Source of the DNA: Roseivivax sediminis
GTDB taxonomy: Bacteria; Pseudomonadota; Alphaproteobacteria; Rhodobacterales; Rhodobacteraceae
Direction of reading: 5' to 3'
Length of the DNA: 64,000 nucleotides
Assembly: GCF_900112685.1 (NCBI RefSeq)
Contig: NZ_FOMS01000011.1
Span: 1 to 64,000, forward strand
Shown here: positions 7,631 to 57,617 of the stretch, one piece after another
Layout: each line of letters begins with the position of its first letter
Numbering within the stretch: position 1 is the stretch's first letter
Made by a program: the position numbers and the translations under genes
The notes under the pieces: model-generated
Databases searched by the model: none
Told to the model about the DNA's origin: nothing
Seen by the model: only the letters and a program-made list of their open reading frames with translations

Positions 7631-7683
7631 GAGCGAGGGGCCAGCCCCTCGCGCTCCCCGGGATACTTATGGGCAGATGAAAA
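7631..7683. repeat. Dispersed hairpin repeat, copy A1
   Basis: The copy has a GCGAGGGGCCAGCCCCTCGC hairpin followed by GCTCCCCGGGATACTTATGG and GCAGATGAAAA. It is the hairpin plus core form of the repeat found at about nine other places in the window. It fills the gap between the ccrM terminator and the EamA permease gene. Confidence 0.8.
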
Positions 7684-7789
7684 CCAGGGGCCGGATCGGA
7701 AAGGGGGCGGTTTCCGGGGTGGCGATCGTCTTGACCCCGGGGCGCGGGCGCGGTCTTGTGCGCGCCACTGCGCCGGGCCGGGAGACATC

Positions 7790-8668
7790 ATGGACATTCG
7801 CGCCAGCCTCATGGGCTTCGCCTTCGCGGCGATGTGGTCGTCGGCCTTCACCTCGGCGCGGATCATCGTCACCGCCGCGCCGCCGCTGTCGGCGCTGGCG
7901 CTGCGTTTCCTCATATCCGGGCTGATCGCCGTGGCGCTGGCGCGCGCGCTTGGGCAGAGCTGGCAGCTGACGCGGCCACAATGGCGCGCGACGATCGTCT
8001 TCGGGATCTGCCAGAACGCCCTTTATCTCGGGCTCAATTTTGTCGCGATGCAGAGCGTCGAGGCATCGCTCGCGGCGATCATCGCGTCGACCATGCCGCT
8101 TATGGTCGCCTTCGCGGGCTGGGCGATCTTCGGAGAGCGGCTGCCCGTGATGGGCGTGCTCGGGCTGGTGGCCGGCGTGGCGGGGGTGAGCGTGATCATG
8201 GGCGCGCGGCTGTCCGGTGGCATGGACCCGGTGGGCGTGGCGCTCTGCGTCGTCGGTTCTGCCTCTCTCGCCGCGGCGACCCTGTCGCTCCGGCAGGCCA
8301 GTTCGGGTGGCAACATGCTCATGGTCGTGGGGCTGCAGATGCTGGTGGGGGCGGCCGTGCTCGCGGTGCCGGCGGGCTTCGAGACGCATGTGGTGGAGCC
8401 GTCCTGGGCGCTGTTCTGGGCCTTCCTTTACACCACGCTGGTGCCGGGGCTGGCGGCGACGCTGGTGTGGTTCTGGCTGGTGGACCGGATCGGCGCGGTA
8501 CGGGCCGCGACCTTCCACTTCCTCAACCCGTTCTTCGGTGTGGCGATCGCGGCGGTCCTGCTGGGCGAGGCGCTCGGCCCGCTCGATGCCATTGGCGTGG
8601 CGATCATCGCGGGGGGTATCCTCGCGGTGCAGCTTGCCCGGGCGCGGGTGCGCCGGGCCGCGGTCTGA
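7790..8668 (+). CDS. EamA/DMT-family permease
   Basis: A 292-residue inner-membrane protein with about ten hydrophobic segments arranged as two EamA repeats of five helices each, the normal build for drug/metabolite transporters. The second repeat ends LNPFFGVAIAAVLLGEALGP, a typical EamA C-terminal motif. The ATG at 7790 follows GGGAGAC; the open frame extends upstream through the dispersed repeat and is not coding there. The substrate cannot be deduced. It is followed by the minus-strand tRNA-Tyr gene. Confidence 0.85.
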   Translation: MDIRASLMGFAFAAMWSSAFTSARIIVTAAPPLSALALRFLISGLIAVALARALGQSWQLTRPQWRATIVFGICQNALYLGLNFVAMQSVEASLAAIIASTMPLMVAFAGWAIFGERLPVMGVLGLVAGVAGVSVIMGARLSGGMDPVGVALCVVGSASLAAATLSLRQASSGGNMLMVVGLQMLVGAAVLAVPAGFETHVVEPSWALFWAFLYTTLVPGLAATLVWFWLVDRIGAVRAATFHFLNPFFGVAIAAVLLGEALGPLDAIGVAIIAGGILAVQLARARVRRAAV

Positions 8669-8702
8669 ACGCGGAGCCATCTTGCGAAATCGGGGTGGAG
8701 AG

Positions 8703-8786
8703 TGGTGGGCGACCCTGGAATCGAACCAGGCGTGGGTCTCCCCGGCGGATTTACAGTCCGCTGCCGCACCTTGCAGCGCGTCGCCC
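8703..8786 (-). tRNA. tRNA-Tyr (anticodon GTA)
   Basis: The minus strand folds as a class II tRNA. The acceptor stem is GGGCGAC with GTCGCCC, then A73 and an encoded CCA. The anticodon stem GCGGA/TCCGC holds loop CTGTAAA (anticodon GTA at 8754-8752). A long variable arm has a GGG/CCC stem, and the T arm is CCTGG-TTCGATT-CCAGG. In this alignment position 8 is G and position 14 is C, instead of the near-universal U8 and A14. Confidence 0.93.
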
Positions 8787-8943
8787 ACGGCGGCGAAAAG
8801 GCAAGGCCCCGCGCCGACGTGACGGCGGACATACAAGCGGCCCCCGAGGGGGTCAACAGGAAATTCCCCGGCGCTGCGACCTGTCCGGCTTGTATCGCGG
8901 CGCGGGCGGTGCGAAGGCATCGAGAGGCCGCGCGGAGAGAGCG

Positions 8944-9723
8944 ATGAAGAAGCCCGACTGGGTGATCCGGAAGGAACAGGCGGCGCGCGCCGGCGCGCGC
9001 GAGACGCTGTGGCTGTTCGGGCTGCACGCGGTGCGGGACGCGCTTGCCAATCCGCGCCGGGAGCGGCTGCGCCTGATCGTGACGGAGAACGCGCGGGCGA
9101 AGCTTGCAGACGTCATCGGGGCGGCAGGGATGGAGCCGGAAATCAGCGATCCGCGCCGGTTTGCCGCGCCGCTCGATCCGGGGTCGGTGCATCAGGGGGC
9201 AGCGCTCGAGGTGCGTCCCCTCGACTGGGGATCGCTGGACGAGGTGGCGATCTCTGGCGAAGGCGCGGCGCCGGTTGTGGTTCTACTCGACCGGGTGAGC
9301 GATCCGCATAACGTCGGGGCGATCCTGCGCTCGGCGGAGGTGTTCGGGGCGCGCGCGGTGATCGGCACGCGGCACCATTCAGCGCCCGAGACCGGCGCGC
9401 TCGCCAAGACAGCGAGCGGCGCGCTGGAGCGCCAGCCCTACCTGCGCGAGCGCAACCTGTCGGACGCGATGACGCGGCTGAAGGACATGGGATTCGTGCT
9501 GCTCGGCCTCGACGGGGAGGCGGACACGACGCTCGAACAGGCGCTGTCGGATGCATCGGATCGGCCCGTGGGGCTCGTGCTCGGGGCGGAGGGGCCGGGT
9601 CTGCGGCCAAAGACGAAGGCGACCTGCGACCGGCTGGTGCGGATCGACTTTCCCGGCGCGTTCGGCTCGCTCAACGTGTCGAACGCCGCGGCGGTGGCGC
9701 TTTACGCCGCTTCGCGGCGCTGA
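8944..9723 (+). CDS. rlmB: 23S rRNA (guanosine-2'-O)-methyltransferase RlmB (SpoU/TrmH family)
   Basis: A 259-residue SpoU-family methyltransferase. An N-terminal substrate-binding domain (about 18-95, from LWLFGLHAVRDALANP) precedes the knotted catalytic domain. The three SPOUT motifs are visible: NVGAILRSAEVFGARAVIG, LVLGAEGPGLRP and SLNVSNAAAVALYAAS. The family methylates the ribose of a guanosine, G2251 of 23S rRNA in E. coli RlmB. Specificity is assigned from overall similarity; a tRNA target is the alternative. It converges with nusB six bases after its stop. Confidence 0.88.
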   Translation: MKKPDWVIRKEQAARAGARETLWLFGLHAVRDALANPRRERLRLIVTENARAKLADVIGAAGMEPEISDPRRFAAPLDPGSVHQGAALEVRPLDWGSLDEVAISGEGAAPVVVLLDRVSDPHNVGAILRSAEVFGARAVIGTRHHSAPETGALAKTASGALERQPYLRERNLSDAMTRLKDMGFVLLGLDGEADTTLEQALSDASDRPVGLVLGAEGPGLRPKTKATCDRLVRIDFPGAFGSLNVSNAAAVALYAASRR

Positions 9724-16029: not shown

Positions 16030-16106
16030 GCCGCCTTAGCTCAGTAGGTTAGAGCGCTAGATTGTGGATCTAGAGGTCCCCCGTTCGAGCCGGGGAGGCG
16101 GTACCA
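16030..16106 (+). tRNA. tRNA-His (anticodon GTG)
   Basis: The 77-nt cloverleaf has acceptor GCCGCCT/AGGCGGT, D arm GCTC/GAGC, anticodon stem CTAGA/TCTAG with loop TTGTGGA (GTG at 16064-16066), T arm CCCCG/CGGGG, and an encoded CCA. G1 is opposite U72, the discriminator is A73 and the base before G1 is T, so no G-1 is encoded. This is the divergent histidine tRNA described for many alphaproteobacteria. Confidence 0.96.
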
Positions 16107-18764: not shown

Positions 18765-18937
18765 GGCTCGACCGCGATGGGAGAACCGGCGCCCTTGCCG
18801 GTGCCGAAGGAGCAACCGCCCCGGAAACTCTCAGGCCAGACGGACCGTCGCGGCTGCACGACTCTGGAGAGAGGTGCGGGCATGGCCCCGCACCCGCCGA
18901 AGGGATAACGATCTCAGGCGGAAGGACAGAGGGGGCG
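18765..18937 (+). promoter_or_regulatory. Tandem glycine riboswitch (gcvT leader)
   Basis: Two successive glycine-aptamer patterns precede gcvT. The first is GATGGGAGAACCGGC then GCCGAAGGAGCAACCGCC and GGAAACTCTCAGGCCAGACG (about 18776-18850). The second is ACTCTGGAGAGAGGTGCGGG then CCGCCGAAGGGATAACG and CTCAGGCGGAAGGACAGAGG (about 18860-18935). The paired GCCGAAGG and CTCAGG elements are the core of this RNA class. Glycine binding is expected to turn on the gcvT-gcvH-gcvP operon. About 95 bases separate it from the gcvT ATG and hold the expression platform. Confidence 0.92.
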
Positions 18938-25831: not shown

Positions 25832-25868
25832 TTCCTTCTTCTCGTTGCAAATACTCCTGCCGGAGGCG
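25832..25868. repeat. Dispersed repeat, copy A3 (core variant)
   Basis: TTCTTCTCGTTGCAAATACT followed by CCTGCCGGAGGCG is the variant core lacking the CAGATGAA end. The same first 20 bases recur at 55149. It lies in the convergent gap between metG and the SlyD-like gene. Confidence 0.75.
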
Positions 25869-44130: not shown

Positions 44131-44145
44131 GCGCCGCGCCCCTCT

Positions 44146-44206
44146 CTTCTTCTCGTCGAAAATACTCCGGGGAGCGCGAGGGGCCGGCCCCTCGCTCCCG
44201 CCCGGT
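44146..44206. repeat. Dispersed hairpin repeat, copy A4
   Basis: CTTCTTCTCGTCGAAAATAC is followed by TCCGGGGAGCGCGAGGGGCC and GGCCCCTCGCTCC. This is a core plus hairpin copy between the oxidoreductase and the first glutamine-synthetase-like gene, inside a probable operon. Confidence 0.8.
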
Positions 44207-44215
44207 GCCGCACGC

Positions 44216-45577: not shown

Positions 45578-46257
45578 GTCAGCCGCCGTGTGCGAAAGAA
45601 GCGCTCGAACTGGTCGATGACCGACAAGCGGTCGCTGGGCGCGCCGAGCTTGGCGCGCGCGCCTTCGAGAAGCGCGTCGGGTACGATCCCCGGCCCGCGC
45701 TCGTCGATCAGCGCCTGGGTGAAGGCGTCGTCGAACTCCGGGTGGGCCTGCACCGTGTAGATGCTGTCGCCGTAGAGCAGCGCGGCATTCTCGCAGAACG
45801 GGTTCGTCGCGACGAGCTGCGCGCCCTCGGGCCGCGCGACGACCTGGTCCTGGTGCCAGGCGTTGATCGTCTTCGGCCCGTCGCCGAACTCGTAGGTATG
45901 CGCACCGACGGCCCAGCCACCGGGGTATTTCTCGACCGTGCCGCCGAGGGCCTGCGCGATGATCTGGTGGCCGAAGCACACCCCGACGAGCGGGCGGTCG
46001 CTGGCGTGGATGTCACGGATGAGTTCTTCGAGCGGCGGGATCCACGCGTGATCCTCGTAGGCGCCGTGCCGCGAGCCGGTGATGAGCCAGCCGTCGGCAG
46101 CCTCGGGGCCCGGAGGGAACTCGTTCTCGACCACGCTCCAGGCTTCGGTGTCGAAGCCGCGGGAGGTAAGCAGGGCGCCGAACATGTCCGAATATTGGCC
46201 CCACCGCGCGGAGAGGCTGTCGGGCACGAGCCCGGTCTGCAGGATTCCGATTTTCAT
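45574..46257 (-). CDS. Class I glutamine amidotransferase-like hydrolase
   Basis: A 227-residue single-domain class I amidotransferase. Nucleophile Cys94 lies in LVGVCFGHQIIAQALGG and the catalytic His in TVQAHPEFDDAFTQALI. In a gamma-glutamylation pathway such a protein can remove the gamma-glutamyl group at the end, as PuuD does, but its sequence type (GMP-synthase-like, VCFGHQ) differs from the Puu PuuD family, so this is context-based. It overlaps the downstream ligase by four bases. A 28-bp palindrome separates it from the second ligase gene. Confidence 0.75.
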   Translation of the reverse strand: MKIGILQTGLVPDSLSARWGQYSDMFGALLTSRGFDTEAWSVVENEFPPGPEAADGWLITGSRHGAYEDHAWIPPLEELIRDIHASDRPLVGVCFGHQIIAQALGGTVEKYPGGWAVGAHTYEFGDGPKTINAWHQDQVVARPEGAQLVATNPFCENAALLYGDSIYTVQAHPEFDDAFTQALIDERGPGIVPDALLEGARAKLGAPSDRLSVIDQFERFFRTRRLT

Positions 46258-46313
46258 GGATCACCGCGTTTGCGTTTCGCGCGTACCGTAGTCGTGTGCG
46301 GGCGCAGGGGCAA

Positions 46314-46368
46314 GCGGGGGCCTGACCGGTCAGGCCCCCGCACCCCAGGGCGGGCAATCTGCCCACCT
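46314..46368. repeat. 28-bp perfect palindrome plus repeat B core (hybrid copy)
   Basis: Bases 46314-46341 are a perfect inverted repeat (GCGGGGGCCTGACC and its complement). CACCCCAGGGCGGGCAATCT and GCCCACCT follow, matching the B-type core on the opposite strand. It joins an A-type hairpin to a B-type core. It lies between the second ligase stop and the amidotransferase gene's neighbourhood and may attenuate transcription. Confidence 0.75.
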
Positions 46369-46375
46369 CGCGCGC

Positions 46376-47728: not shown

Positions 47729-47742
47729 TTGGGTCCTTGTCG

Positions 47743-48549
47743 TTAGCGCGCGAGCGTCGGGCGAAGCCGAAGCCGCGCGCGTCCATCCTGCGGAAGATGC
47801 CGGTTCAGCCGCCGGTTCACCAGCCCGAAGAGCGAAATGATTACCAGAGTCAGCAGGATGAAGTAGGCCGCAAGGATCGGGTAGGGCACGAACGGGTTGA
47901 ACGTCTTGTCCGCGAAGTAGCTGGCGTAATAGAGCGCGTCGCCCTTCTGCTGGCGCGCCGGAAAGCCGGTGAAAAAGACCAGCGCGGTGGCGTGAAAGAG
48001 AAAGATCGCCTCGTTCGTGTAGGCCGGCCAGGCCAGCCGGAGCATCGTCGGCCAGGTGATCTTGCGGAACTTCGTGACGCCCGAGAAGCCGTAGGCATCC
48101 GCCGCCTCCAGATCGCCCTTCGGCACCGATTGCAGCGCGCCGTAGAAGATTTCCCCCGAATAGGCGGCGGTGTTGAAAAACAGCACGATCGTCGCGCCGA
48201 GCCAGGCGGAGGTGAACGGATCGAAGAACGGGTAGGCCGATTTCAGGCTGAGAAAGGCGAAATAGGCAAAGAAGAACTGGATGAAGAGCGGCGAGCCCCG
48301 GAAGAGGAAGATGAACCATTCCGACGGCTTGCGGATCAGCGGATGCGCCGACGCCTTGCCGAGCGCCACCGCGGTGGCCAGGAAGAACCCAGTCACAAGC
48401 GCCAGCGTGCCGAAATAGACGTTCCAGATCATGCCCGAGCCGATCAGCGTAACCTGCTGGCAGAGCGTGAACTCCGACCGCGGCAGTAGCCGCTCGCCAT
48501 AGCCGAGCGAGCGGAAGGCGTAATCGGCGACGGTCTCCCAGCAGCTCAT
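47743..48549 (-). CDS. ABC transporter permease, polar amino acid type
   Basis: A 268-residue inner-membrane permease with about five transmembrane segments. The EAA coupling loop is QSVPKGDLEAADAYGFSGVT then KFRKITWPTMLRLAWPAYTN. LFRGSPLFIQFFFAYFAFLS is the typical PAAT-family segment. It pairs with the other permease as a heterodimer and precedes the second ligase by 14 bases, implying co-transcription. Confidence 0.88.
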   Translation of the reverse strand: MSCWETVADYAFRSLGYGERLLPRSEFTLCQQVTLIGSGMIWNVYFGTLALVTGFFLATAVALGKASAHPLIRKPSEWFIFLFRGSPLFIQFFFAYFAFLSLKSAYPFFDPFTSAWLGATIVLFFNTAAYSGEIFYGALQSVPKGDLEAADAYGFSGVTKFRKITWPTMLRLAWPAYTNEAIFLFHATALVFFTGFPARQQKGDALYYASYFADKTFNPFVPYPILAAYFILLTLVIISLFGLVNRRLNRHLPQDGRARLRLRPTLAR

Positions 48550-48579
48550 GCGGTCCTCCCGCCGGAAGCGGTGCGATGT

Positions 48580-48612
48580 GAGTATTTGGAACGAGAAGAA
48601 GCAGGGGCGCGG
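48580..48612. repeat. Dispersed repeat, copy A5 (core only)
   Basis: GAGTATTTGGAACGAGAAGA and AGCAGGGGCG match the TTCTTCTCGTTxCAAATACTC core on the opposite strand. It lies between the two permease genes. Confidence 0.65.
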
Positions 48613-48640
48613 CGCGCAGGGGGTGGGGTGGGACGCATGG

Positions 48641-49525
48641 TCATGCCGCGGCCCTCTTGCGCTGGGCCTCGCCGGCGAGGGTGGCCTGCCCGCGGGTGAG
48701 GCGCGCGGTCACGCGGGCGAGCACGACCTCCGAGACGCGCGTGAAGGCGAGATAGAAGACCAGAAGCCCGAGGAAATACCACATCCGCCAGTCGCCGTGC
48801 GGGTAGGAGGTGAATTGCGGCGTCTTGGTCCCGCCAAGCTCGCGCGCCCAGTAGACGATGTCCTCGACGCCAAGCAGGAACAGCAGCGGCGTCGCCTTGA
48901 TCAGCACCATCCACAGGTTCGACAGGCCCGGCAGCGCGTAGACCCACATCTGCGGGACAACGATGCGGCGGAAGACCTGTGCCTCGGTCATGCCGTAGGC
49001 GTGCCCGGTCTCGATCTGCGCGCGCGGCACAGCCCGCATCGCGCCGTAAAGGACGTTGGCGGCGAAGGCGCCGAAGACGATGGCGAAGGTCAGCACCGCG
49101 AGCGCGAAGCCGTAGACTTCGTGGATCCACTGGTCGGCGGTCGACAGCGGCAGCTTGGCCTGCGGGCAGACGACGAAGTCGTTGCCCTGCCAGATCGGCT
49201 GGTCCCAGTGGCCGCAGCGGATCTGGTGGCGCGCCCATTCGAACGCCTGGTCGAGGGCGATCACGAAGAACAGGAAGAAGGCGATGTCGGGCACGCCGCG
49301 CACGATGGCGATGTAGCCCTTGCCGATCCACGCCAGCGGTGCGATGCGCGAGCGTGCCAGGCTCGCGCCGCCGAAGCCGAAGGCGAGGGCGGCGGGCGCG
49401 GTCACGGCGAGCAGCAGCAGAACGGTGCCGAAGGCGCCGTAGAACGCCATGTGCTTGCCCGTCGTCAGGTAGCAGGCGAGCCAGGCGAGGCCCTCGAGGC
49501 TGGCGGGATCGGTGCAGTCAGGCAT
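48641..49525 (-). CDS. ABC transporter permease, polar amino acid type
   Basis: A 294-residue permease partner. About five hydrophobic segments surround GYIAIVRGVPDIAFFLFFVI, a PAAT signature, and the EAA loop is RAVPRAQIETGHAYGMTEAQ followed by VFRRIVVPQMWVYALPGLSN. An extra periplasmic loop of about 60 residues (EWARHQIRCGHWDQPIWQGN) carries four possible Cys, longer than in most HisQ/HisM-type permeases. It is three bases downstream of the hydrolase gene, in the same operon. Confidence 0.88.
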   Translation of the reverse strand: MPDCTDPASLEGLAWLACYLTTGKHMAFYGAFGTVLLLLAVTAPAALAFGFGGASLARSRIAPLAWIGKGYIAIVRGVPDIAFFLFFVIALDQAFEWARHQIRCGHWDQPIWQGNDFVVCPQAKLPLSTADQWIHEVYGFALAVLTFAIVFGAFAANVLYGAMRAVPRAQIETGHAYGMTEAQVFRRIVVPQMWVYALPGLSNLWMVLIKATPLLFLLGVEDIVYWARELGGTKTPQFTSYPHGDWRMWYFLGLLVFYLAFTRVSEVVLARVTARLTRGQATLAGEAQRKRAAA

Positions 49526-49528
49526 CGC

Positions 49529-50341
49529 TCAGCCCTCCAGCCGGGACAGGATCGCCCGCGCCACGCGCGGCGGATCCTCCAGTTGCGGCAGGTGCCCCAG
49601 CCCGTCCATTTGGGTCAGCGGCACGCCGATCCGCTCGGCCAGCGCCGCGCCGCGCGCGAGCGGAATCCAAGGATCGTCGGCGCCCCAGAGGACCGAGGCG
49701 GGGCAGCGCAGGTCGCCGTAGCGATCCTCCATCTCGGCGGTGAAGCGCTCGTCCGCGAGCGCGAATTGCCGCCAGAAGGCGGTCTGACCGTCCGGTGTCA
49801 GCCACGGCGCGTCGAGGCCGTCGTAATCGTCGGGCGCGATGGGATGGGCGAGCGCGCTGTCGATATAGGCGCAGACCACCGCCTTGTGGATATGCGGCGG
49901 CAGCCCGGTGAACGCGTCCACATGGCGCTTGACGTGTTCGAAGAAGTCCGATCCCCAGGGCCGCATCGCGACCACGTTCATCAGCACGAGCGCTGTGTAG
50001 TCACGCCCGCGGAGAAGATGCGCGCGCAAGGTGACCGCGCCGCCGAAATCGTGCGCGACGACGCGCGGCGCATCGAGGCCCCAATGGTCCAGCATCTCGC
50101 AGAAGACCTCGCCCTGCACGTCGATCGATGGCGGCCGCGCCCCGTCCTTTTGCGATCGGCCGAAGCCGGGCATGTCATAGGCGTGGACGCGGAACCGCGC
50201 CTCCAGCGCCGGGGTGATGCGGTGCCAGCTGTAGGAGGACCACGGCCAGCCATGCGCCAGCACGAGCGGCGGGCCGTCACCCGCCACACGCGCCACGACA
50301 GTCCCGGCGCTCGTCTCGAAGGTCTGGTCAAGGCTCCACAT
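49529..50341 (-). CDS. Alpha/beta hydrolase with Asp nucleophile (dehalogenase/epoxide-hydrolase type)
   Basis: A 270-residue hydrolase. The oxyanion region is LVLAHGWPWSSYSWHRITPA and the nucleophile elbow is VVAHDFGGAVTLR (Asp98, about residues 95-107); an Asp rather than a Ser is the mark of haloalkane/haloacetate dehalogenases and epoxide hydrolases. ASVLWGADDPWIPLARG has an acid residue and GLGHLPQLEDPP the His. Its place between the binding protein and permease genes of one transporter suggests it processes the imported compound. Starts at 50341 or 50350 are both possible. Confidence 0.78.
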   Translation of the reverse strand: MWSLDQTFETSAGTVVARVAGDGPPLVLAHGWPWSSYSWHRITPALEARFRVHAYDMPGFGRSQKDGARPPSIDVQGEVFCEMLDHWGLDAPRVVAHDFGGAVTLRAHLLRGRDYTALVLMNVVAMRPWGSDFFEHVKRHVDAFTGLPPHIHKAVVCAYIDSALAHPIAPDDYDGLDAPWLTPDGQTAFWRQFALADERFTAEMEDRYGDLRCPASVLWGADDPWIPLARGAALAERIGVPLTQMDGLGHLPQLEDPPRVARAILSRLEG

Positions 50342-50389
50342 CGCGGGCATGCCGCGGGGCGGGCGATCCGCCCACACCCCCCCTGGCGC

Positions 50390-51115
50390 TCAATACTGGC
50401 CGATATCCTCTCCGAACCACTTCACGAGCATCTCGTTCAGCGTGCCGTCCTCCTTCATGGAGGTGATGGCGGCGTCGAAGGTTTCCTTCAGCTCGGTGTC
50501 GCTCTCGCGCAGGCCCATGCCGATCCCGTCGCCAAGCGGCACCGGCTCGCCCACGAAGACCAGCTCGCCGCCCGAGGCGTCGACGAGCGGCTTGAGGTAA
50601 TCGTAATCCGCGAAGACCGCGTCGGCCTCGCCGTTGCGGACCGCCGCCACCGTCTCCTCGGGCGTCGCGAACTCGATCAGCGCGGCGTCGCCCTCGGCCA
50701 CGTGCGCGGCCTGGATCGTCGCGGCCTGGCCGGCGACCACGCCGGTTTCCCAGTCGGCGTCCTCGGAGGTGGCGACATAGGCGCTCTCGGTCGGCGGGTA
50801 GTAATCCTGGGTGAAGTCGATGACCTCGTCGCGCTCGTCGGTGATCGACATGCCGGCCATGATCGTGTCGTAGTTCGACGACACCAGGTTGGGGATGATC
50901 GAATCCCAGTCGTTTGTGACCCATTCGCAGGTCAGTTCGGCCCGGGTGCACAGTTCGTTGCCGAGCTCGATCTCGAAACCGTCGACGTCGCCGGCATCGT
51001 TGATGAAGTTGTACGGAGGATAGGCGCCCTCCGTGCCCATGCGGATCACGTCCTGGGCGAGGGCGGCCGAGGCGGCAAGCGACAGCGCCGCGGCGGTGGT
51101 CAGAAGCGTTTTCAT
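50390..51115 (-). CDS. Periplasmic substrate-binding protein, polar amino acid family
   Basis: A 241-residue SBP_bac_3 protein. A signal peptide MKTLLTTAAALSLAASAALA is followed by IRMGTEGAYPPYNFINDAGD and VDGFEIELGNELCTRAELTC, the classic start of HisJ/ArgT-type proteins. WDSIIPNLVSSNYDTIMAGM and SITDERDEVIDFTQDYY contain ligand-side residues, and an Arg/Asp pair is expected to bind the alpha-amino and carboxyl groups. It therefore likely binds an amino-acid-like amine. The signal-peptide ATG at 51115 is clear. It is separated from the ATPase gene by 29 bases. Confidence 0.9.
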   Translation of the reverse strand: MKTLLTTAAALSLAASAALAQDVIRMGTEGAYPPYNFINDAGDVDGFEIELGNELCTRAELTCEWVTNDWDSIIPNLVSSNYDTIMAGMSITDERDEVIDFTQDYYPPTESAYVATSEDADWETGVVAGQAATIQAAHVAEGDAALIEFATPEETVAAVRNGEADAVFADYDYLKPLVDASGGELVFVGEPVPLGDGIGMGLRESDTELKETFDAAITSMKEDGTLNEMLVKWFGEDIGQY

Positions 51116-51144
51116 GAATGGTCTCCCTGGTATTTTGCGGGGGT

Positions 51145-51915
51145 CTACGCCCCGTGGGTGGAACTTAGAAAGCCGCGCAGCCGCTCGGAGCGAGGGGTTC
51201 CGAACAGGTCGTCCGGCGCGCCCTCTTCCTCGATCAGCCCGCGGTGCAGGAACACGACATGCGAGGACACGTCGCGCGCCATCTTCATGTCGTGGGTGAC
51301 GATGATCATCGTGCGGCCCTCGTCGGCGAGCGCCTTGATGACGCGGACCACCTCCTGCTCCAGCTCGGGGTCGAGTGCGGAGGTCGGCTCGTCGAAGAGG
51401 ATCGCCTCGGGCTCCATCGCCAGCGCGCGCGCGATCGCCGCGCGCTGCTGCTGGCCGCCCGAAAGGTGTGCGGGATAGGCCTCGCACTTGTCGCCGATGC
51501 CGACCTTGGCGAGGTAGTCGCGCGCCGCCGCCTCGGCCTCCGACCGGTCGCGGCCGAGCACGGTGACCGGCGCTTCCATCACGTTCTGCAGGATGGTCAT
51601 GTGGGACCACAGGTTGAACTGCTGGAAGACCATCGACAGGTTCGTGCGGATGCGGATGACCTGTTTCCGGTCGGCGGGGCGCCGGTCATGGCCCTCGCCG
51701 CGCCAGGTCACCGGCTCGCCCTTGAAGCGGATCTCGCCTTGCTGGCTGTCCTCCAGGAGATTGGCGCAGCGCAGCAGCGTCGACTTGCCCGATCCCGACG
51801 ACCCGATGAGCGAGACGACCTCGCCGGCGCGCGCGGTCAGGTCGATCCCCCTCAGCACCTCGAGCGAGCCATAGCTCTTGTGCAGGTCGCGGATGGCGAT
51901 GACGGGTTCGGTCAC
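51145..51915 (-). CDS. ABC transporter ATP-binding protein, polar amino acid type
   Basis: A 256-residue ATPase. Walker A is SLIGSSGSGKSTLLRCANLL, the Q-loop is MVFQQFNLWSHMTILQNVME, the signature is LSGGQQQRAAIARALAMEPE and Walker B is ILFDEPTSALDPELEQEVV, matching HisP/GlnQ. A GTG at 51915 (VTEPVIAIRDLHKSYGSLEV) is the most likely start. The only in-frame ATG lies 96 bases upstream, within unlikely sequence. It is the first gene of the cluster and drives the two permeases downstream. Confidence 0.88.
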   Translation of the reverse strand: MTEPVIAIRDLHKSYGSLEVLRGIDLTARAGEVVSLIGSSGSGKSTLLRCANLLEDSQQGEIRFKGEPVTWRGEGHDRRPADRKQVIRIRTNLSMVFQQFNLWSHMTILQNVMEAPVTVLGRDRSEAEAAARDYLAKVGIGDKCEAYPAHLSGGQQQRAAIARALAMEPEAILFDEPTSALDPELEQEVVRVIKALADEGRTMIIVTHDMKMARDVSSHVVFLHRGLIEEEGAPDDLFGTPRSERLRGFLSSTHGA

Positions 51916-52104
51916 GGGGGGCTGTCGCGCGCTCTCTTCCTGTCGGTCCGGGGGAGCATGGAGCGAAAGGGCCGGGCATTGCAACGTGCATTCCGGCCGG
52001 AATGCCGCCACGACATGCTCTCTGACGAAGCGTCAGCCCGTTTCCCGGGCACCACCCGTGCCGGCCCGTCGTCCCCGCCGCTCCCCCTCCTTGCCGCTCC
52101 GGGG

Positions 52105-52164
52105 CTTCATCTGCCCGAAAATATCCCGGGGGAGTCGCCGCCACTGGCGGCGACGGGGGCAGCG
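52105..52164. repeat. Dispersed hairpin repeat, copy A6
   Basis: TTCATCTGCCCGAAAATATC then CCGGGGG (52107-52133) is identical to the copy at 57572. A GTCGCCGCCACTGGCGGCGAC hairpin follows, and then GGGGGCAGCGCCCCC. It occupies the gap between the TerB-like gene and the ABC ATPase gene. Confidence 0.85.
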
Positions 52165-52198
52165 CCCCCTGACAGGCCCTCCGGCGCGGACGCCGTGG

Positions 52199-52639
52199 TC
52201 AGCCCCGCGCTTCCACCCTCTGACGCGCGAGGGCGCTGTCGCGGTCGGAGATGCCCAGGAGGTTCGACACCAGCCGCAGGAGCGAATCCTCCTCGGGGTC
52301 TCGAACCCCGTCTGCGAGCACCACGGACCACAGTGCCTCGATCACGCCCATGCGGTCCTCGTAGGCCACCGCGTCCTTGATCGCTCGGGTGAAGCGGACG
52401 GTGTCCGGCGCCTCGCTTTCCAGCGCCTCGGCCTCGCCGCGCAGCGCCGTGGCCTCCTCGGGCGGCAGTCCGTAGCGGGTGGCGGCGATACGGTCGATCC
52501 GCGCGCGTTCGTCGGAATCGTAGTCGCCGTCGGAGCGTGCGATGCGCACCAGCAGGGCGGTCAGGGCGAGCCGCGCGTCGTCGTCGGGCAATGTCGCGGG
52601 GGCGGGCGCCGTGAGGCGGTTGATAAGATCAGCGAACAT
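52199..52639 (-). CDS. TerB-family (tellurite-resistance-like) protein
   Basis: A 146-residue helical protein. LALTALLVRIARSDGDYDSD (about residues 24-43) and VIEALWSVVLADGVRDPEED (about 98-117) are the two related acidic motifs of the TerB domain, likely a metal-binding cage (DGDYDSDE, DGVRDPEED). Proteins of this kind are common in alphaproteobacteria outside tellurite operons, and their function is unknown. It is cytoplasmic. It lies 43 bases after another small helical protein gene and may be co-transcribed with it. Confidence 0.85.
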   Translation of the reverse strand: MFADLINRLTAPAPATLPDDDARLALTALLVRIARSDGDYDSDERARIDRIAATRYGLPPEEATALRGEAEALESEAPDTVRFTRAIKDAVAYEDRMGVIEALWSVVLADGVRDPEEDSLLRLVSNLLGISDRDSALARQRVEARG

Positions 52640-52681
52640 GAAGGGTCATATAGACCGCGTGCCCGGCGGCGCAAACCGCCC

Positions 52682-53095
52682 TCAGGCAATGTCGGCAGAG
52701 GCGAGCGCGCCGTCCGGCAGGCCGAAGGTGCGGGCGACCGACGCGGCGGCCCGCGGGCCGCGCCCGGCTGCGGCGACGTGCAGGAGGCAATGTGCAAAGG
52801 CCGCACGTTCCTCGGCCGGGACGTGCTGCGCCACCAGCCTCTGGTAATCGCAGCCCGGCGGCAGGCGCGCGGCCACGTCCTCGCAGATGCGCCGCATCTC
52901 CGCGGCCTCCCGGCGTGTCAGATCGTAGCGATGCGCGAGCACCGCGTCGATGCGCTCGGCCACCGGCAGGAGCTCGGCGAGCACGCCTTCTGAGGACAGG
53001 CGCACGGTCAGCGCGCCGAGCGCCACCGGCGTATCCGCCGGATCGAGCCAGGCGGCGTCCGGTCGCGAGGCCCAGAAGATCAGTCTCATGGACAT
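52682..53095 (-). CDS. Hypothetical helical protein, possibly TerB-like
   Basis: A 137-residue protein starting MSMRLIFWASRPDAAWLDPA. The middle (VAERIDAVLAHRYDLTRREA, CEDVAARLPPGCDYQRLVAQ and ERAAFAHCLLHVAAAGRG) is helical and follows the TerB-like order of acidic/His-bearing helices, but the DGDxD motif is missing, so the relation is weak. The ATG at 53095 follows GGAGGCGTCC. It lies between rlmJ and the TerB-like gene on the same strand. Confidence 0.5.
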   Translation of the reverse strand: MSMRLIFWASRPDAAWLDPADTPVALGALTVRLSSEGVLAELLPVAERIDAVLAHRYDLTRREAAEMRRICEDVAARLPPGCDYQRLVAQHVPAEERAAFAHCLLHVAAAGRGPRAAASVARTFGLPDGALASADIA

Positions 53096-53184
53096 GGACG
53101 CCTCCCTGCGCGCAGCCCGAAAGCGGCCGGACGGGACCGGCTGCCCGGCAGCGTGACGCGCGCGGGGCGTCTTGTCCAGCCTCC

Positions 53185-53967
53185 CTAGGTCGCTGCCGCC
53201 ATCGCTCGGCCGATTGCGGCGAGCGCGGTATCGAGCCCGTAGGGCGGGTTCACGACGAAGAGCCCCGAGCCGCGCATCCGGTGCCCCGGCCGCACCGGCG
53301 GGAAGCCGACCTCGTGGCGCAGCGCGCCGGGATGGTCGCGGACCAGCCGCTCCAGCATCGGTCGGTGCGGCGCCGCTTCGAGCACCGGGTACCACAGCAC
53401 CAGGATGCCGACGTTCCAGGCGCGCGCGAGCTTGGCGAAGAGCTTCGGGATGTCCTCGTAGTCCCGCTTCACCTCCCAGGACGGATCGCAGAGCAGCAGC
53501 CCGCGCCGCGGCGTCGGCGGACAGAGGCTGCGGGCGAGGTCCGTCCCGTCCTGTCGGTGGATCCGCACACGCGCATCGGCGCCGAGCGTCTCCGCCAGCG
53601 CCGCATGCTCGGCCGGGTGCAGTTCGGCCAGGTGCAACCGGTCCTCGGCGCGCAGCAGCGTCGCCGCCAGGAGCGGCGAGCCGGGATAGGCCGCGTCGCC
53701 ATGACGGGCCCGGATCGCCGCGAGCGCGGCGCGGTAAGGATGATCGGCGGCGAAGGCCGCCTCGGCCCGGCCGATCCCCGCCGCCGCCTCCCCGGTCTTC
53801 AGCGCCTCGGCGCCGGTCAGGTCGTATAGCCCGCGACCGGCATGGGTCTCCAGATAGCTCAGCGGCTTCGGCTTCCGCGTGAGGTAGGACAGCATCCACG
53901 CCAATGCGGCGTGCTTGTGCACGTCCGCCGGGTTACCGGCGTGGTAGGCGTGCTGGTAGGAGAGCAT
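53185..53967 (-). CDS. rlmJ: 23S rRNA (adenine-2030-N6)-methyltransferase
   Basis: A 260-residue methyltransferase. MLSYQHAYHAGNPADVHKHA and LSYLETHAGRGLYDL (S-adenosylmethionine site) are typical of RlmJ, and LLLCDPSWEVKRDYEDIP carries the DPP-like (here DPSW) catalytic motif. It methylates A2030 of 23S rRNA in E. coli. Length is close to the family norm of about 280. Confidence 0.92.
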   Translation of the reverse strand: MLSYQHAYHAGNPADVHKHAALAWMLSYLTRKPKPLSYLETHAGRGLYDLTGAEALKTGEAAAGIGRAEAAFAADHPYRAALAAIRARHGDAAYPGSPLLAATLLRAEDRLHLAELHPAEHAALAETLGADARVRIHRQDGTDLARSLCPPTPRRGLLLCDPSWEVKRDYEDIPKLFAKLARAWNVGILVLWYPVLEAAPHRPMLERLVRDHPGALRHEVGFPPVRPGHRMRGSGLFVVNPPYGLDTALAAIGRAMAAAT

Positions 53968-53988
53968 GGGCGGGCCTTCCTTGCGGGG

Positions 53989-54013
53989 ATGGGCAGATTG
54001 CCCACCCTAGGGG
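53989..54013. repeat. Dispersed repeat, copy B2
   Basis: TGGGCAGATTGCCCACCCTA followed by GGGG is identical over 24 bases to 32333-32356. It fills the gap between rlmJ and cutA. Confidence 0.8.
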
Positions 54014-54330
54014 CGGCCGGGCGCGGCCACACTCGTTTCGATCCAGCCGAGATAGCCCTCGGACCCCGCGTCGATCTCGTGCGCCCAGAGCGCCGGTTCG
54101 TCGTAGGAATGCGTCTCGAGGATCAGCGCGGCGAGCGCGTCGTAGCCTTCGCGCGTGGTCTTGAACAGCAGGCGCCATTCGGCATCCTCCTGCACGCCGT
54201 CCCATTCGTAGACCGACGAGATGGCGGTGATCTGCACGCAGGCGGCGCGTCTATCGGTCACCGCGCGGCGGGCGAGGGCGCGGGCGGCGTCCTCCGAGTC
54301 GATGGTGGTAAAGACGGCGAGGGCGGTCAT
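54007..54330 (-). CDS. cutA: CutA divalent-cation tolerance protein
   Basis: A 107-residue CutA1-family protein, a trimeric ferredoxin-like fold linked to copper tolerance. Landmarks are AVFTTIDSEDAARALARRAV, AACVQITAISSVYEWDGVQE and LLFKTTREGYDALAALILET with HSYDEPALWAHEID. The stop overlaps repeat B2. Its start overlaps the stop of the upstream DUF2306 gene (ATGA), so the two are coupled. Confidence 0.92.
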   Translation of the reverse strand: MTALAVFTTIDSEDAARALARRAVTDRRAACVQITAISSVYEWDGVQEDAEWRLLFKTTREGYDALAALILETHSYDEPALWAHEIDAGSEGYLGWIETSVAAPGRP

Positions 54331-54953
54331 CGGCGCTCCTGTCTGAGCCAGAGTTCGAGGGCGGCGAGGTAGGGCAGGTAGAACCCTGCGAAGTTGAAAA
54401 GGTCGAAGGGGCCGGTGAAGGCCGCGTTCGACCCCGCGCCCCCGGTCGCGGCATACCAGACCCAGTAGTGCAGGCGATAGAGGAAGGAGCCGAGCGCCAG
54501 CACCGTCAGCCTGAGCGCCCAGCGGCGATGCCGCGCCCGGTCCTTGTCGAGCGCATGATAGGCGGTGTTCGCTGCGGCCAGAAGCAGCAGCGCCCCGTAG
54601 AGCGCGAAGCCCGCCGACATCAGCGTCCCGCCGATCGTGCCTTTCAGCGCGATGTAGCCGAGGCCGCAGATCCCGGTGATCGTCGCGGCACCCAGCGTGA
54701 CGTAGCCGAGCACGCGGTGGGCGCGCGGACGGCGGATGCGGATACGCTCGATCAGTTGGAGCGGCGCGAGGCAGGTCGCGAGGGCGCCGGTGGCCATGTG
54801 GGTGAAGATCAATGCGTTGGGAAGCGGCGTGGTGAAGAACCGCGTGTCTTCCGACAGGTCGGCCGTCAGCCCGCGCAGGCCGAACCCCGCCGAATAGAGC
54901 ACGAAAGGCAGGGCAAGAAGGCCGAGGATCACGAGGGCGGCACGGCGGGGCAT
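54327..54953 (-). CDS. DUF2306-type membrane protein
   Basis: A 208-residue integral membrane protein with about six hydrophobic segments. ALIFTHMATGALATCLAPLQ contains an in-membrane His, RPRAHRVLGYVTLGAATITG the HR motif and DRARHRRWALRLTVLALGSF a further His cluster, the pattern of DUF2306/heme- or quinone-linked small membrane proteins. No reaction is known. It is translationally coupled with cutA; a link to metal handling is possible but unproven. Confidence 0.75.
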   Translation of the reverse strand: MPRRAALVILGLLALPFVLYSAGFGLRGLTADLSEDTRFFTTPLPNALIFTHMATGALATCLAPLQLIERIRIRRPRAHRVLGYVTLGAATITGICGLGYIALKGTIGGTLMSAGFALYGALLLLAAANTAYHALDKDRARHRRWALRLTVLALGSFLYRLHYWVWYAATGGAGSNAAFTGPFDLFNFAGFYLPYLAALELWLRQERR

Positions 54954-55078
54954 GGCCTCAAGGTGCGGCGGTGCGACCCGCCGGGCAAGCGTCCCGGTGC
55001 GCGACGCATGCGGAGTCGCAGGTCGCTTGCCCGGGCCGGCCTATCGGCGCCATGCCGTGCGCTTTGGCGGCGCCGGGC

Positions 55079-55130
55079 GGAGCGAGGGGCCGGCCCCTCG
55101 CGCTCCCCGGAGTATTTGAAGCCCAAAGAA
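55079..55130. repeat. Dispersed hairpin repeat, copy A7a
   Basis: GAGCGAGGGGCCGGCCCCTC is followed by GCGCTCCCCGGAGTATTTGA and AGCCCAAAGAAG. The hairpin plus core matches copies A1 and A4. Confidence 0.85.
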
Positions 55131-55144
55131 GCTGCACGCGCGCC

Positions 55145-55182
55145 TGTTTCTTCTCGTTGCAAATACTCCCGCCGGAGGCGTG
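55145..55182. repeat. Dispersed repeat, copy A7b
   Basis: GTTTCTTCTCGTTGCAAATA then CTCCCGCCGGAGGCG is the variant core shared with copy A3. It lies 14 bases after A7a and on the opposite strand, so the two form a head-to-head pair. Confidence 0.8.
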
Positions 55183-55399
55183 TTTCGATGCCGCCAGGTG
55201 AGGCGGCCGGACAGGGGCGGGCACGGGCCTTTTCGGACGTGACCGAGGCGATCCCGGGGGCTGCCTTCGGGTTGCCGGACAAGCTGGCGCAATCCGGCCG
55301 TGGCGCAAACGGCGCCGCCGACCCCGCCCATTCGGCTTGAACGCCGCGCCTCACCCCCCTAAGCCGTGATCGCGAGACCTCCGCCGAAGGGAATCCCCG

Positions 55400-56260
55400 A
55401 TGACCGAGAGCCTGCCCGCCCCGCTTTCCGCGCAGATCACGCGCGCGCAGAAGACGCAGGTGCTGAACCTCGTCCGCCGCGCCGCCCGGGCCGAGATCAT
55501 GCCGCGCTTCCGCAATCTCGGCGCCGCCGACATCGATCGGAAGTCCGGGCCGCAGGACCTCGTCACCGACGCCGACCGCGAGGCCGAGAAGATGATCGCC
55601 CGCGGGCTGCAGGCGCTCTGGCCCGATGCCGTCATCGTCGGGGAGGAGGACGCCAGCGCCCGCCCCGAGGTGGTGGACGGGCTGCCGGAGGCGGCGCTGG
55701 GTTTCACCATCGATCCGGTGGACGGAACCTGGAACTTCGCCAATGGCCTGCCGCTCTTCGGGGTGATGGTGGCGATGACGCGCTACGGCGTGCCGGTGTT
55801 CGGGCTGCTTTACGATCCGGTGATGGACGATTGTATCTGGGCCGAGACCGGCGAGGCGGCCGAGCTCGTCAAGGGGCGCCAGCGGCCGCGCCCCCTGCGC
55901 GCCTCTTCGGGCGGCACGCTGGAGGACCTGGTCGGGTTCGCCTCGCCCTACCTCTTGCCGCGCGACCGGCAGGACTCCTTCGTCGCGACCTTGCCGCGCC
56001 TGTCGCGCGCGGTGTCGATGCGGTGCGCCTGCCACGAATTCCGCACCTTCGCGCAGGGCGGTGCGGATTTTGTGCTCGCGACCAAGGTCACGCCGTGGGA
56101 CCACACGCCCGGGGCGCTCATCGCCGAACGGGCGGGCGGCTACGTGCGCATGCTCGACGGCTCTGACTACCGCGCCGGCACGACATCGGGCTATCTGCTG
56201 GCGGCGTCCGACAAGACGACGTGGCAGCGGCTGCGTGATCTCTGGGCGTTCCTGCTGTAG
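55400..56260 (+). CDS. hisN: Histidinol-phosphatase, inositol-monophosphatase family
   Basis: A 286-residue Mg-dependent phosphatase. Metal-site motifs are VIVGEEDASARPE (GEE), FTIDPVDGTWNFANGLPLFG (DPVDGT) and KVTPWDHTPGALIAERAGGY (WDHxPG). The LWPDAVIVGEED form and length match the HisN type that removes phosphate from histidinol phosphate in histidine synthesis. A general inositol phosphatase is the alternative. It is monocistronic, followed by the decayed clpS. Confidence 0.85.
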   Translation: MTESLPAPLSAQITRAQKTQVLNLVRRAARAEIMPRFRNLGAADIDRKSGPQDLVTDADREAEKMIARGLQALWPDAVIVGEEDASARPEVVDGLPEAALGFTIDPVDGTWNFANGLPLFGVMVAMTRYGVPVFGLLYDPVMDDCIWAETGEAAELVKGRQRPRPLRASSGGTLEDLVGFASPYLLPRDRQDSFVATLPRLSRAVSMRCACHEFRTFAQGGADFVLATKVTPWDHTPGALIAERAGGYVRMLDGSDYRAGTTSGYLLAASDKTTWQRLRDLWAFLL

Positions 56261-56332
56261 CGCTGAGGCGCGCCCGCCGTCGGGACTGGACCGGGCGCCG
56301 CGCCTCGGCGAGACTTGGCGCTGAGGTCTGCG

Positions 56333-56625
56333 ATGCCCCGGACCGTGACGGCGCCGACCTCGGAAGCCAAGACGCGACCGCAGCAACCGCCGCTCTACAA
56401 GGTGATCCTGCTGAACGACGATTTCACGCCGTGCGACTTCGTCGTGGCGGTGTTCCGGATGTCCGAAGGAGGAGGCGTTGGGGGTCATGCTCACCGCGCA
56501 TCGCCGCGGCGCCTGTGTCATCGCCGTCCTCACCCGGAAGGTGGCCGAGGAATAGGCCGGGCGCGCGAACGACAAAGAGCCGCGCGGCGGGCTATCCACT
56601 GGCGTTTACCATCGAGAAGGAGTGA
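56333..56625 (+). pseudogene. clpS: Decayed ATP-dependent protease adaptor ClpS
   Basis: The first 43 codons are a normal ClpS start ([20 protein letters not shown]). An extra G at about 56468 shifts the frame. Reading on in the second frame gives [20 protein letters not shown] then LTRKVAEE and a TAG at 56553, where ClpS usually has Lys or Gln. A second shift between about 56570 and 56597 is needed to reach [13 protein letters not shown] and the natural stop at 56623. Three independent lesions argue for a real pseudogene rather than a sequencing slip. ClpS normally hands N-degron substrates to ClpAP; another copy may exist elsewhere. Confidence 0.85.
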
Positions 56626-56871
56626 GCCGGGCGGGCCTCCCGGCAGAACATGCGCCCCGGCGTGAAAATGGCTGCGCGGCCTGAGGCGGTTTGACCCGGT
56701 CCGCATTGCCGAGGGCCGATCTGAGCCACGCCATGAGGCGCGTGCCGGTGGATCGCCGCCTGGGGGCAATACCGGTTCTCTCAGGGCGTGCCGGGGCGCC
56801 TGCACCTGCCGTTGATGCGGGGTCCTGCCTCGTCTGCGCTCCCGAAGCCTCCGGGCCGCCCGCCCGTCGCG
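56626..56871. other. Gap between clpS pseudogene and imuA
   Basis: There is no recognisable gene in these 246 bases. This is where imuB would begin if the usual imuA-imuB-dnaE2 order held; I find no imuB-like (Y-family polymerase) sequence on the minus strand. Confidence 0.4.
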
Positions 56872-57477
56872 CTACGCCATCGCCACCTCCGCCGGCCCCT
56901 CGATCGCGGACGGGCCGAGATGCCAGGTCCGGGGCGGCGCCATCCGCGCGCGCAGCCGCTCGAGCCGCCAGCGCCCGGCGCTGCCGATATGCGCGGGCTC
57001 CATTCGCAGCCGTGTCTCCACCCCTTGCGCGCCGCCCGCGCCCGGCGTCAGGATCAGCCCGAGGGGCCCGCCCCGCCCCGCCGCCGCCCCTGCCTCGGCG
57101 GCCAGGTGCAGCCGGCGCACCGGAGTCAGCGGCGGCGGCTCCGGCAGCTCGGCCACCACTGCCGAGGCCACGCCCGCGCGCAGGCTCTCCTCCATCGCCC
57201 AGAGCAGATCCTCCGGCCGTCGCGCAGCGATGAAAACCACGCCGCCGGGATCGCACCACTCGGCCATCCCCGGCGGGTGCAGCGGATCGCGCCCCCAGGC
57301 TGGCGCGATCCAGATCGCCGGGGCGCCCGCCGCCGCCAGGGCACGCAGCGCCAGCGTCCGCCGCGCCCGTCCGCAGATCTCGTGCACCCGACCCAGCGTC
57401 AGGGGCACTTCGTCCCAGAGGGTGAGGGCGGGCGGCGCCCCGTGCGGGACGCGGCGAAGAGGGGGGGCGAGGCTCAT
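56872..57477 (-). CDS. imuA: ImuA-like SOS mutagenesis protein
   Basis: A 201-residue protein of the ImuA type (SOS mutasome component distantly like RecA/SulA). LTLGRVHEICGRARRTLALR, IWIAPAWGRDPLHPPGMAEW, VVFIAARRPEDLLWAMEESL and LTPVRRLHLAAEAGAAAGRG are the family segments. A LexA box lies 17 bases before the start. The ATG at 57477 is chosen by its AGGA spacing; another at 57486 is too close to that site. Its usual partners imuB and dnaE2 are not adjacent, so it is either an orphan or they lie elsewhere. Confidence 0.75.
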   Translation of the reverse strand: MSLAPPLRRVPHGAPPALTLWDEVPLTLGRVHEICGRARRTLALRALAAAGAPAIWIAPAWGRDPLHPPGMAEWCDPGGVVFIAARRPEDLLWAMEESLRAGVASAVVAELPEPPPLTPVRRLHLAAEAGAAAGRGGPLGLILTPGAGGAQGVETRLRMEPAHIGSAGRWRLERLRARMAPPRTWHLGPSAIEGPAEVAMA

Positions 57478-57494
57478 GCAACTCATCCTAATAT

Positions 57495-57509
57495 GTTCGC
57501 TAAATGTTC
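57495..57509 (-). promoter_or_regulatory. LexA (SOS) box upstream of imuA
   Basis: GTTCGCTAAATGTTC on the plus strand is a perfect GTTC-N7-GTTC (GAAC-N7-GAAC read from imuA), 17 bases before the imuA ATG. Confidence 0.82.
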
Positions 57510-57570
57510 TCAACGTCGATCCGTCCCCGATCAACGGCGCTCCGCTGCCGTACAGCGCCTCGCCCACGGG

Positions 57571-57617
57571 TTTCATCTGCCCGAAAATATCCCGGGGGGT
57601 GTAGGGGGCAGCGCCCC
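57571..57617. repeat. Dispersed hairpin repeat, copy A8
   Basis: TTTCATCTGCCCGAAAATAT then CCCGGGGGG, identical to copy A6 over 27 bases, is followed by TGTAGGGGGCAGCGCCCCCA (hairpin). It lies in the imuA-modA divergent gap. Confidence 0.87.

What the first reader, a model, noticed from the sequence alone, without database searches (positions are those of the whole stretch)
7631..57617. Dispersed family of hairpin-plus-core intergenic repeats (A copies)
Ten stretches share a modular unit: a core read as TTCATCTGCCCGAAAATATC + CCGGGGG (or a variant TTCTTCTCGTTGCAAATACTCC) next to a GC-rich hairpin such as GCGAGGGGCCAGCCCCTCGC. Copies are at about 7631, 23818, 25832, 44146, 48580, 52105, 55079, 55145 and 57571, with a hybrid at 46314. 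They occur in both orientations and only between genes. Two copies (52107 and 57572) are identical over 27 bases. The hairpins keep pairing while their bases differ, which suggests selection for structure. They could be REP-like elements, transcription terminators, sites for a nucleoid protein, or non-autonomous mobile units.
Basis: seen in the sequence. Interest (0 to 1): 0.7.

Follow-up and report, generated by a model that had tools for sequence, protein, structure and literature searches.

The report
Hairpin gene-end repeats with species-specific tails
Short DNA hairpins followed by a tail word sit at gene ends in one large group of bacteria; the hairpin plan is shared, but species use different tail words, even at the same sites in close relatives, which suggests that something in the cell reads them.

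Summary
The repeats are real: nine of the ten stretches belong to one family; the 46314 'hybrid' belongs to another. Each unit reads hairpin, C-run, GGRN, TATTT, two free bases, then a tail word. TATTT-N4-9-GADGAA has 121 matches in the genome against 1 for the reversed pattern. The family is Rhodobacterales-wide (115 of 118 matches in a capped scan, by name). Units lie at gene 3' ends (own genome: 29 sense, 28 convergent, 18 antisense, 3 divergent). Inner hairpin pairs hold while bases change. Tail words are much more alike within than between genomes and differ even within the genus. At 18 own sites where a congener also has the unit, orientation is the same, and at 16 the congener has another word. 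The free bases and the bases after the word are far less alike within genomes than the word, though somewhat more than between genomes; this favours a factor that reads the word, with copying a close rival. No Y1 (REP) transposase was found, no Rfam family matches, and the papers searched hold no description. Best reading: REP-like, terminator-like gene-end elements with a lineage-specific recognised tail.

The parts
7630..7681 (+). Copy E1, word A (TACTT anchor): hairpin GGAGCGAGGGGCCAGCCCCTCGCGCTCC, then CCGGGATACTT-AT-GGGCAGATGAA; 128 nt after the ccrM-like stop codon
23822..23867 (+). Copy E2, word A, hairpin GCGGGGGCCAGCCCCCGC; 16 nt after the gcvP stop, before metG. No unit at this site in G263, the congener with the same gcvP-metG order
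25836..25867 (-). Copy E3, word B, short form GCCTCCGGCAGGAG; between convergent metG and an FKBP-type isomerase gene; not found at this site in G261, G262, G268
44147..44198 (-). Copy E4, word B, hairpin GCGAGGGGCCGGCCCCTCGC; after a glutamine-synthetase-like gene. Unit at the same site, same orientation, in G261 (one change in the anchor), G262, G263 and G268, each with a word other than B
48576..48600 (+). Copy E5, word B, no hairpin; antisense between two ABC-permease genes. Word CCAAGAAGAAG at the same site in G261, G262, G268 (anchor TATTT decayed in the last two); the intergenic region is reduced to 5 bp in G263
52106..52170 (-). Copy E6, word A, two hairpins; after a terB-like gene. 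Absent from the same intergenic region in G261, G262, G263, G268, where that region is 94 to 114 bp shorter
55079..55130 (+). Copy E7, word C (TATTTGAAGCCCAAAGAAG), hairpin GCGAGGGGCCGGCCCCTCGC; tail-to-tail with E8 in a divergent region
55148..55179 (-). Copy E8, word B, short form GCCTCCGGCGGGAG; tail-to-tail with E7
57572..57620 (-). Copy E9, word A, hairpin GTGGGGGCGCTGCCCCCTAC; upstream of a solute-binding-protein gene, in a divergent region by predicted genes; absent in G262 and G263
46317..46366 (.). Hairpin GCGGGGGCCTGACCGGTCAGGCCCCCGC plus one copy (46352) of a separate TGGGCARATTGCCCA palindrome family

Best explanation
These are terminator-like gene-end elements (REP-like in placement) made of two functional parts. 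Part one is a GC-rich hairpin followed by C-run, GGRN and a short T-rich tract (TATTT): in the transcript of the upstream gene it most likely ends transcription, or leaves a hairpin-protected 3' end. Part two is a downstream box of about 20 bp (GGRN-TATTT-NN-R-word) that is recognised in sequence by a factor of the cell whose preference is specific to the lineage; own genome has at least three word classes, so probably more than one factor or specificity. Copies facing the other way at a 3' end would do the same for antisense transcription, or simply protect the 3' end. Shown: architecture, placement, covariation of the inner hairpin pairs, order-wide spread, word similarity within genomes, different words at orthologous sites. 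Inferred: termination or 3'-end protection, and the existence and nature of the factor.
For: Placement: at least one flanking gene 3' end in 75 of 78 intergenic copies of own genome, 118 of 122 copies in named loci with both neighbours called, 10 of 11 in G265, 13 of 13 in annotated plasmids (three of these are one site in three Leisingera species). Divergent regions are 51 of 224 intergenic regions of 40 bp or more in 400 kb of G265. Pairing kept with base changes. Words (22 genomes, 113 copies): identity at word positions 9-18 within genomes, median 0.85 (range 0.33-1.00), between 0.63; pooled 0.80 against at most 0.68 with shuffled genome labels. The free pair (positions 6-7) is only 0.42 and positions 20-27 only 0.39 within genomes. 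So the constant block has fairly sharp edges and a variable pair inside, as recognition sites have. Orthologous sites: of 25 own copies with a recovered orthologous region, 18 have the unit in at least one congener, none only in opposite orientation, and 16 of the 18 show a different word class; downstream flanks can stay put while the word changes (L022 against L272). The short form GCCTCCGGCGGGRNTATTT is mostly exact (exact/one change: own 31/4, G268 33/1, G261 17/3, G263 10/1, G262 6/2, G264 2/1).
Against: No factor was identified and no transcript-end data were available. The 2 bases before TATTT go with the word (GA with A in 41 of 41, AG with B in 37 of 39), and in G505 7 of 8 listed copies share even the free bases. 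Among codirectional gene pairs 77 copies are sense and 56 antisense (own 29:18, named 43:32, G265 3:2, annotated 2:4), which a one-way terminator does not predict. The T-tract is short: the consensus terminator scan of 44001-64000 reports none of the copies there. G261 and G268 sites used for orthology were mostly fetched around their own elements, so 18 of 25 is biased upward; the six window copies compared through synteny give 2 of 6.
Confidence: 0.42

Rival explanations
1. REP/BIME-like repeats kept alike by copying: short-tract ectopic gene conversion, or re-insertion at existing copies by an unknown enzyme, spreads the current word through a genome. No factor reads the word.
For: Modules are exchanged: the hairpin type differs at several orthologous sites (L010, L018, L058). 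Two bases before TATTT are linked to the word. The free pair and the downstream bases are somewhat more alike within genomes than shuffled labels allow. E6 looks like a gain of about 100 bp. G505 copies are nearly clonal.
Against: No Y1 transposase found in the genome. The free pair lies inside the constant block yet is far more variable than the word on one side and TATTT on the other. Downstream flanks at orthologous sites can stay put while the word changes (L022 against L272). No reversed orientation at orthologous sites.
Confidence: 0.33
2. Ordinary intrinsic terminators. The tail is only a preference of RNA polymerase for certain downstream DNA.
For: Hairpin directly upstream of a T-rich tract; 48 of 57 own copies with a gene 3' end on the hairpin side have TATTT 40-95 nt from it.
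Against: Species of one genus use different words. 18 of 78 own copies face the wrong way. Tract too short for the consensus rule.
Confidence: 0.13
3. Sites read by base pairing with a guide or small RNA that carries the complement of the word.
For: Words can be wholly unlike (G265 R-GTCCG[GT/AA]CGTGACAGG), which pairing allows more easily than one protein family.
Against: Searches for the word outside the units found 2 places in G265, neither with the exact word of the elements, and 18 in own genome (reversed-pattern control 7), of which 3 are variant units, 13 lie in predicted genes and 2 are other places (L356 at a gene start, L368). Both searches skip places with T at position -4, and word A was not searched this way.
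Confidence: 0.05
4. DNA-uptake-type sequences driven by biased import, with species dialects.
For: Dialects by species, hairpins at gene ends (as recalled for Neisseria).
Against: About a hundred copies, nearly all intergenic, few one-change variants of the short form.
Confidence: 0.04

Closest known systems
REP / BIME elements of enterobacteria (recalled) and Br-REP1/Br-REP2 of Bradyrhizobium (PMC5082802, passages read)
   Same: Short extragenic palindromes in tens to hundreds of copies, in 3' UTRs, with an example between convergent genes, fast turnover between related species
   Different: Constant TATTT-NN-R frame over an order with a separate genome-specific word; no Y1 transposase found in the genome; different words at orthologous sites. 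The Br-REP consensus sequences quoted in that paper are different
Intrinsic (Rho-independent) terminators
   Same: GC-rich hairpin followed by T-rich tract at gene 3' ends
   Different: Tract TATTTNN only; conserved downstream word; 18 of 78 own copies antisense
Protein-dependent terminator boxes (TTF-I/Sal box, Reb1; recalled, no call)
   Same: T-rich stretch near a box read by a DNA-binding protein, with differences between species
   Different: Here in bacteria, at about a hundred loci, with a hairpin; no protein known
DNA uptake sequences of Neisseriaceae (recalled, no call)
   Same: Species dialects, association with terminator hairpins
   Different: Copy number, intergenic restriction, structure

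Membership tests
REP elements with RAYT | short extragenic palindromes in tens to hundreds of copies | tested here: met
   121 pattern matches in the genome; 78 of 80 fetched copies intergenic
REP elements with RAYT | Y1-type transposase in the genome | tested here: not met
   PF01797: 0 matches at E 0.001 in own genome (completeness 99.96), 5 of 14 control genomes positive
REP elements with RAYT | GTAG-type tetranucleotide at the hairpin foot (recalled) | not tested
   no systematic search; the constant bases seen are GGRN-TATTT on the 3' side
Intrinsic terminators | stable hairpin kept by compensatory changes | tested here: met
   (two innermost outer pairs); not every copy: 48583 has no hairpin, 25836 and 55148 only the short form
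Intrinsic terminators | T-tract of at least 5 T in 8 after the stem | tested here: not met
   region 44001-64000 only: none of the copies there reported
Intrinsic terminators | sense orientation after genes | tested here: inconclusive
   codirectional pairs: 77 sense, 56 antisense
Intrinsic terminators | transcripts end there | not testable with these tools
   no 3'-end data at hand
Rfam families | match above gathering score | tested here: not met
   only a tRNA and a glycine riboswitch in the window
DNA uptake sequences | very high copy number, coding regions included (recalled) | tested here: not met

The most novel reading that the evidence does not exclude
Rhodobacterales have a gene-end marking system: a constant hairpin-TATTT frame carries a word of 10-16 bases read by a fast-evolving factor, and the sites of a genome follow when that factor changes, so that congeners keep sites but speak different dialects. 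It would be a bacterial counterpart of protein-read terminator boxes, or a nucleic-acid-guided one.
Probability: 0.33. Interest if true: 0.85.

Novelty: new variant of a known kind. Interest (0 to 1): 0.6.

Why it matters
If a factor reads these words, a whole order of bacteria has an undescribed layer at gene ends, with a ready-made natural experiment: the same sites with different words in closely related species. If instead the words spread by copying, it is an unusually clean case of concerted evolution of very short dispersed DNA. Either way about a hundred gene-end elements in a genome such as this one are invisible to a consensus terminator scan and to Rfam.

Tried and rejected
REP with Y1 transposase: rejected. 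Guide or small RNA with the same word: searched in G265 and, for word B, in own genome; nothing convincing. Extended closing stem: folds of single window copies suggested that the last C-run pairs with bases upstream of the hairpin, but over 208 elements real partners bind no better than partners swapped between elements (-12.64 against -12.88 kcal/mol, p 0.72; a first run with a faulty pattern kept 55 elements). 'Absent in half the genus': my first reading (G264 1, G265 1, G266 7, G267 0 matches) was wrong for G265, which has the same unit with another word; G264 and G267 were not examined this way. Phage origin: 1 hit that covers half the query in 50,697 phage records, 20 viral contigs of 2.9 million. 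Coding reading of the tail: considered and dropped, since the units are intergenic, mostly with hairpins in front. Literature: searches listed no paper whose title or opening describes this family; the library lacks most subscription papers. PMC8632094, PMC7866481, PMC5107571 and PMC5082802 were seen as passages only, the rest as search listings.

Rows dropped before counts: 80 copies, 2 inside predicted genes left out, word C copies not in its pattern, 93 words typed of the 100 places listed (121 in the genome), 7 left out by eye as other lengths or chance, 91 of 18 nt used, 341 copies, 221 parsed, 115 without the C-run-GGRN form, 5 without hairpin, 145 of 232 informative, 205 of 341, 128 copies outside genes, 122 with both neighbours, 4 more inside genes, 20 genomes, two with three rows (G293, G407) left out by oversight, put right (22 genomes, 113 of the rows listed), which moved the within-genome median from 0.91 to 0.85; annotated contexts 13, two records without annotation left out.
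Full report
Both cores are at the stated places and do not occur in shuffled windows. Read in one direction, the copies share one plan: a GC-rich hairpin, a run of C, GGRN, TATTT, two free bases, and a tail word. A third word, C, RGCCCAAAGAAG, is carried by the copy at 55079. Two copies have a short GCCTCCGGC form in place of the hairpin and one has none. The 'hybrid' at 46314 is not a member.

Genome and group. TATTTN{4,9}GADGAA has 121 matches in the 4.62 Mb genome and 1 with the reversed pattern. In 121 genomes of the order, counts often far exceed the control, though some genomes show little excess. In a sample of other families of the class, excess over the control is small or absent and the words listed share no common form (capped list).

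Placement. By it, 78 of 80 fetched own copies are intergenic: hairpin side / tail side 3'/5' 29, 3'/3' 28, 5'/3' 18, 5'/5' 3. Named loci, called with own genome's codon model: 43, 43, 32, 4. G265: 3, 5, 2, 1. Thirteen copies in annotated plasmids: sense 2, convergent 7 (three of them one TetR-speB site in three Leisingera species), antisense 4, divergent 0, by a gene table that is incomplete. In 400 kb of G265 taken without regard to the element, intergenic regions of at least 40 bp are 147 codirectional, 26 convergent, 51 divergent. So the units belong to gene 3' ends, with only a weak preference for the sense direction. Of 25 neighbouring pairs within 300 bp in the fetched loci, 23 stand tail to tail and 2 head to head; among short forms, one search also lists same-direction neighbours in G268 (three) and G263 (one).

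Hairpin. Beside the G-run/C-run core, the first two outer pairs stay complementary with different bases far above shuffled partners; pairs 3 and 4 do so weakly or not. A regularity remains unexplained: the last C-run has the same length as the G-run of the hairpin in 191 of 221 copies (shuffled mean 34%, maximum 43%; the named loci were picked by a pattern that asks for CCCCGG). Where the arm is not uniform, the last six bases match the mirror image of the 3' arm better than its copy in 140 of 145, never the reverse; 77 of these are perfect mirrors, in many of the others only the C-run bears on it, and many copies are related. A mirror repeat beside a purine-rich arm could allow a triplex; that is speculation. 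Pairing of the C-run with bases upstream of the hairpin was tested and not supported.

Tail words. In own genome the positions between anchor and end are nearly invariant apart from the two free bases and R. G268 uses R[CT]CAAGAAGAA and G261 RCCAAGAAGAA in the places listed. G265, which looked empty, has the same hairpins and GGAGGTATTT followed by R-GTCCG[GT/AA]CGTGACAGG. A hairpin-anchored pattern with a free tail matched 61 of 295 genomes of the family, one per genus, with one to three words typical of each genome (capped list). In the 22 genomes with three or more listed rows, word identity is 0.85 within genomes (median, range 0.33-1.00) and 0.63 between; pooled 0.80 against at most 0.68 with shuffled labels. 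The free pair is 0.42 against 0.27, and positions 20-27 are 0.39 against 0.37; both exceed shuffled labels when pooled (0.455 against at most 0.341; 0.436 against at most 0.403), in part through near-clonal genomes such as G505. At one annotated site in Leisingera, L. thetidis and Leisingera sp. M658 carry GACCAGAAAGAAG and L. caerulea GGAAAGATGAAAC.

Orthologous sites. Regions syntenic with the window and regions around G261 and G268 elements were compared. Of 25 own copies with a recovered orthologous region, 18 have the unit in at least one congener, none only in opposite orientation; 16 show another word class; the two that share the word are the L008/L009 pair against G262. The clearest case is 44147: the unit stands after the same gene in G261, G262, G263 and G268. 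At 48583 the word persists in G262 and G268 although the TATTT anchor has decayed. At 52106 own genome has gained the unit. Because G261 and G268 loci were mostly chosen around elements, 18 of 25 overstates persistence; the six window copies compared by synteny give 2 of 6. Orientation and word differences are not affected by that choice.

Mechanism. A constant block with a variable pair inside, few one-change variants of the short form, and word change with unmoved flanks point to selection by a reader. Linkage of the two bases before TATTT with the word, exchange of hairpin modules, the slight within-genome likeness of free pair and flanks, and near-clonal copies in G505 point to copying. 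Both may act. Termination is inferred from anatomy and place only; the consensus scan does not see these sites.

Known systems. No Rfam match, no Y1 transposase found. Br-REP elements of Bradyrhizobium are the nearest described relatives in kind (PMC5082802, passages). The 3'-end study of Rhodobacter sphaeroides reports no motif upstream of the ends it compared between pnp mutant and wild type (PMC7866481, passages). No description of this family appeared in the literature searches listed under Tried and rejected.

Noticed in passing
32334, 46352, 53991; L007, L008, L053, L068, L073: A second repeat family, GGGTGGGCARATTGCCCACCCT: 11 matches in own loci, 9 intergenic (6 convergent, 3 codirectional; 3-23 nt from the nearest gene end), 2 inside predicted genes; no match in about 270, 230 and 410 kb of G268, G261 and G265. 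It shares GGGCAGAT with word A.
   Followed up: partly
whole family: Length of the last C-run equals the hairpin G-run (191 of 221) and its sequence mirrors the 3' arm (140 of 145); unexplained.
   Followed up: partly
L068 3026 and 3838 (G000:C8:39825, 40637): Two same-way short-form copies with near-identical flanks 812 bp apart; only one of the two found in G261.
   Followed up: no
L008/L009 and L127/L132: Tail-to-tail pair with 213 bp spacing kept between own genome and G262, with the same word.
   Followed up: partly
about 56330-56560: Looks like a broken clpS fragment (read by eye in the sequence printed, not searched).
   Followed up: no
18768-18857 and 16030-16103: Glycine riboswitch a few kb upstream of gcvP, and a tRNA gene.
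   Followed up: no
L321, L330, L334, L337, L338: Several of the 20 viral-contig matches are contigs of about 14 kb with the unit near one end, perhaps gene-transfer-agent clusters (guess from size only).
   Followed up: no
L300, L305, L317: In G265 another hairpin module (GTCGCCATTGTCTCTCGGACCAATGGCGCGAC) precedes three copies; its loop holds CGGACC, complementary to GGTCCG of most tails there.
   Followed up: no
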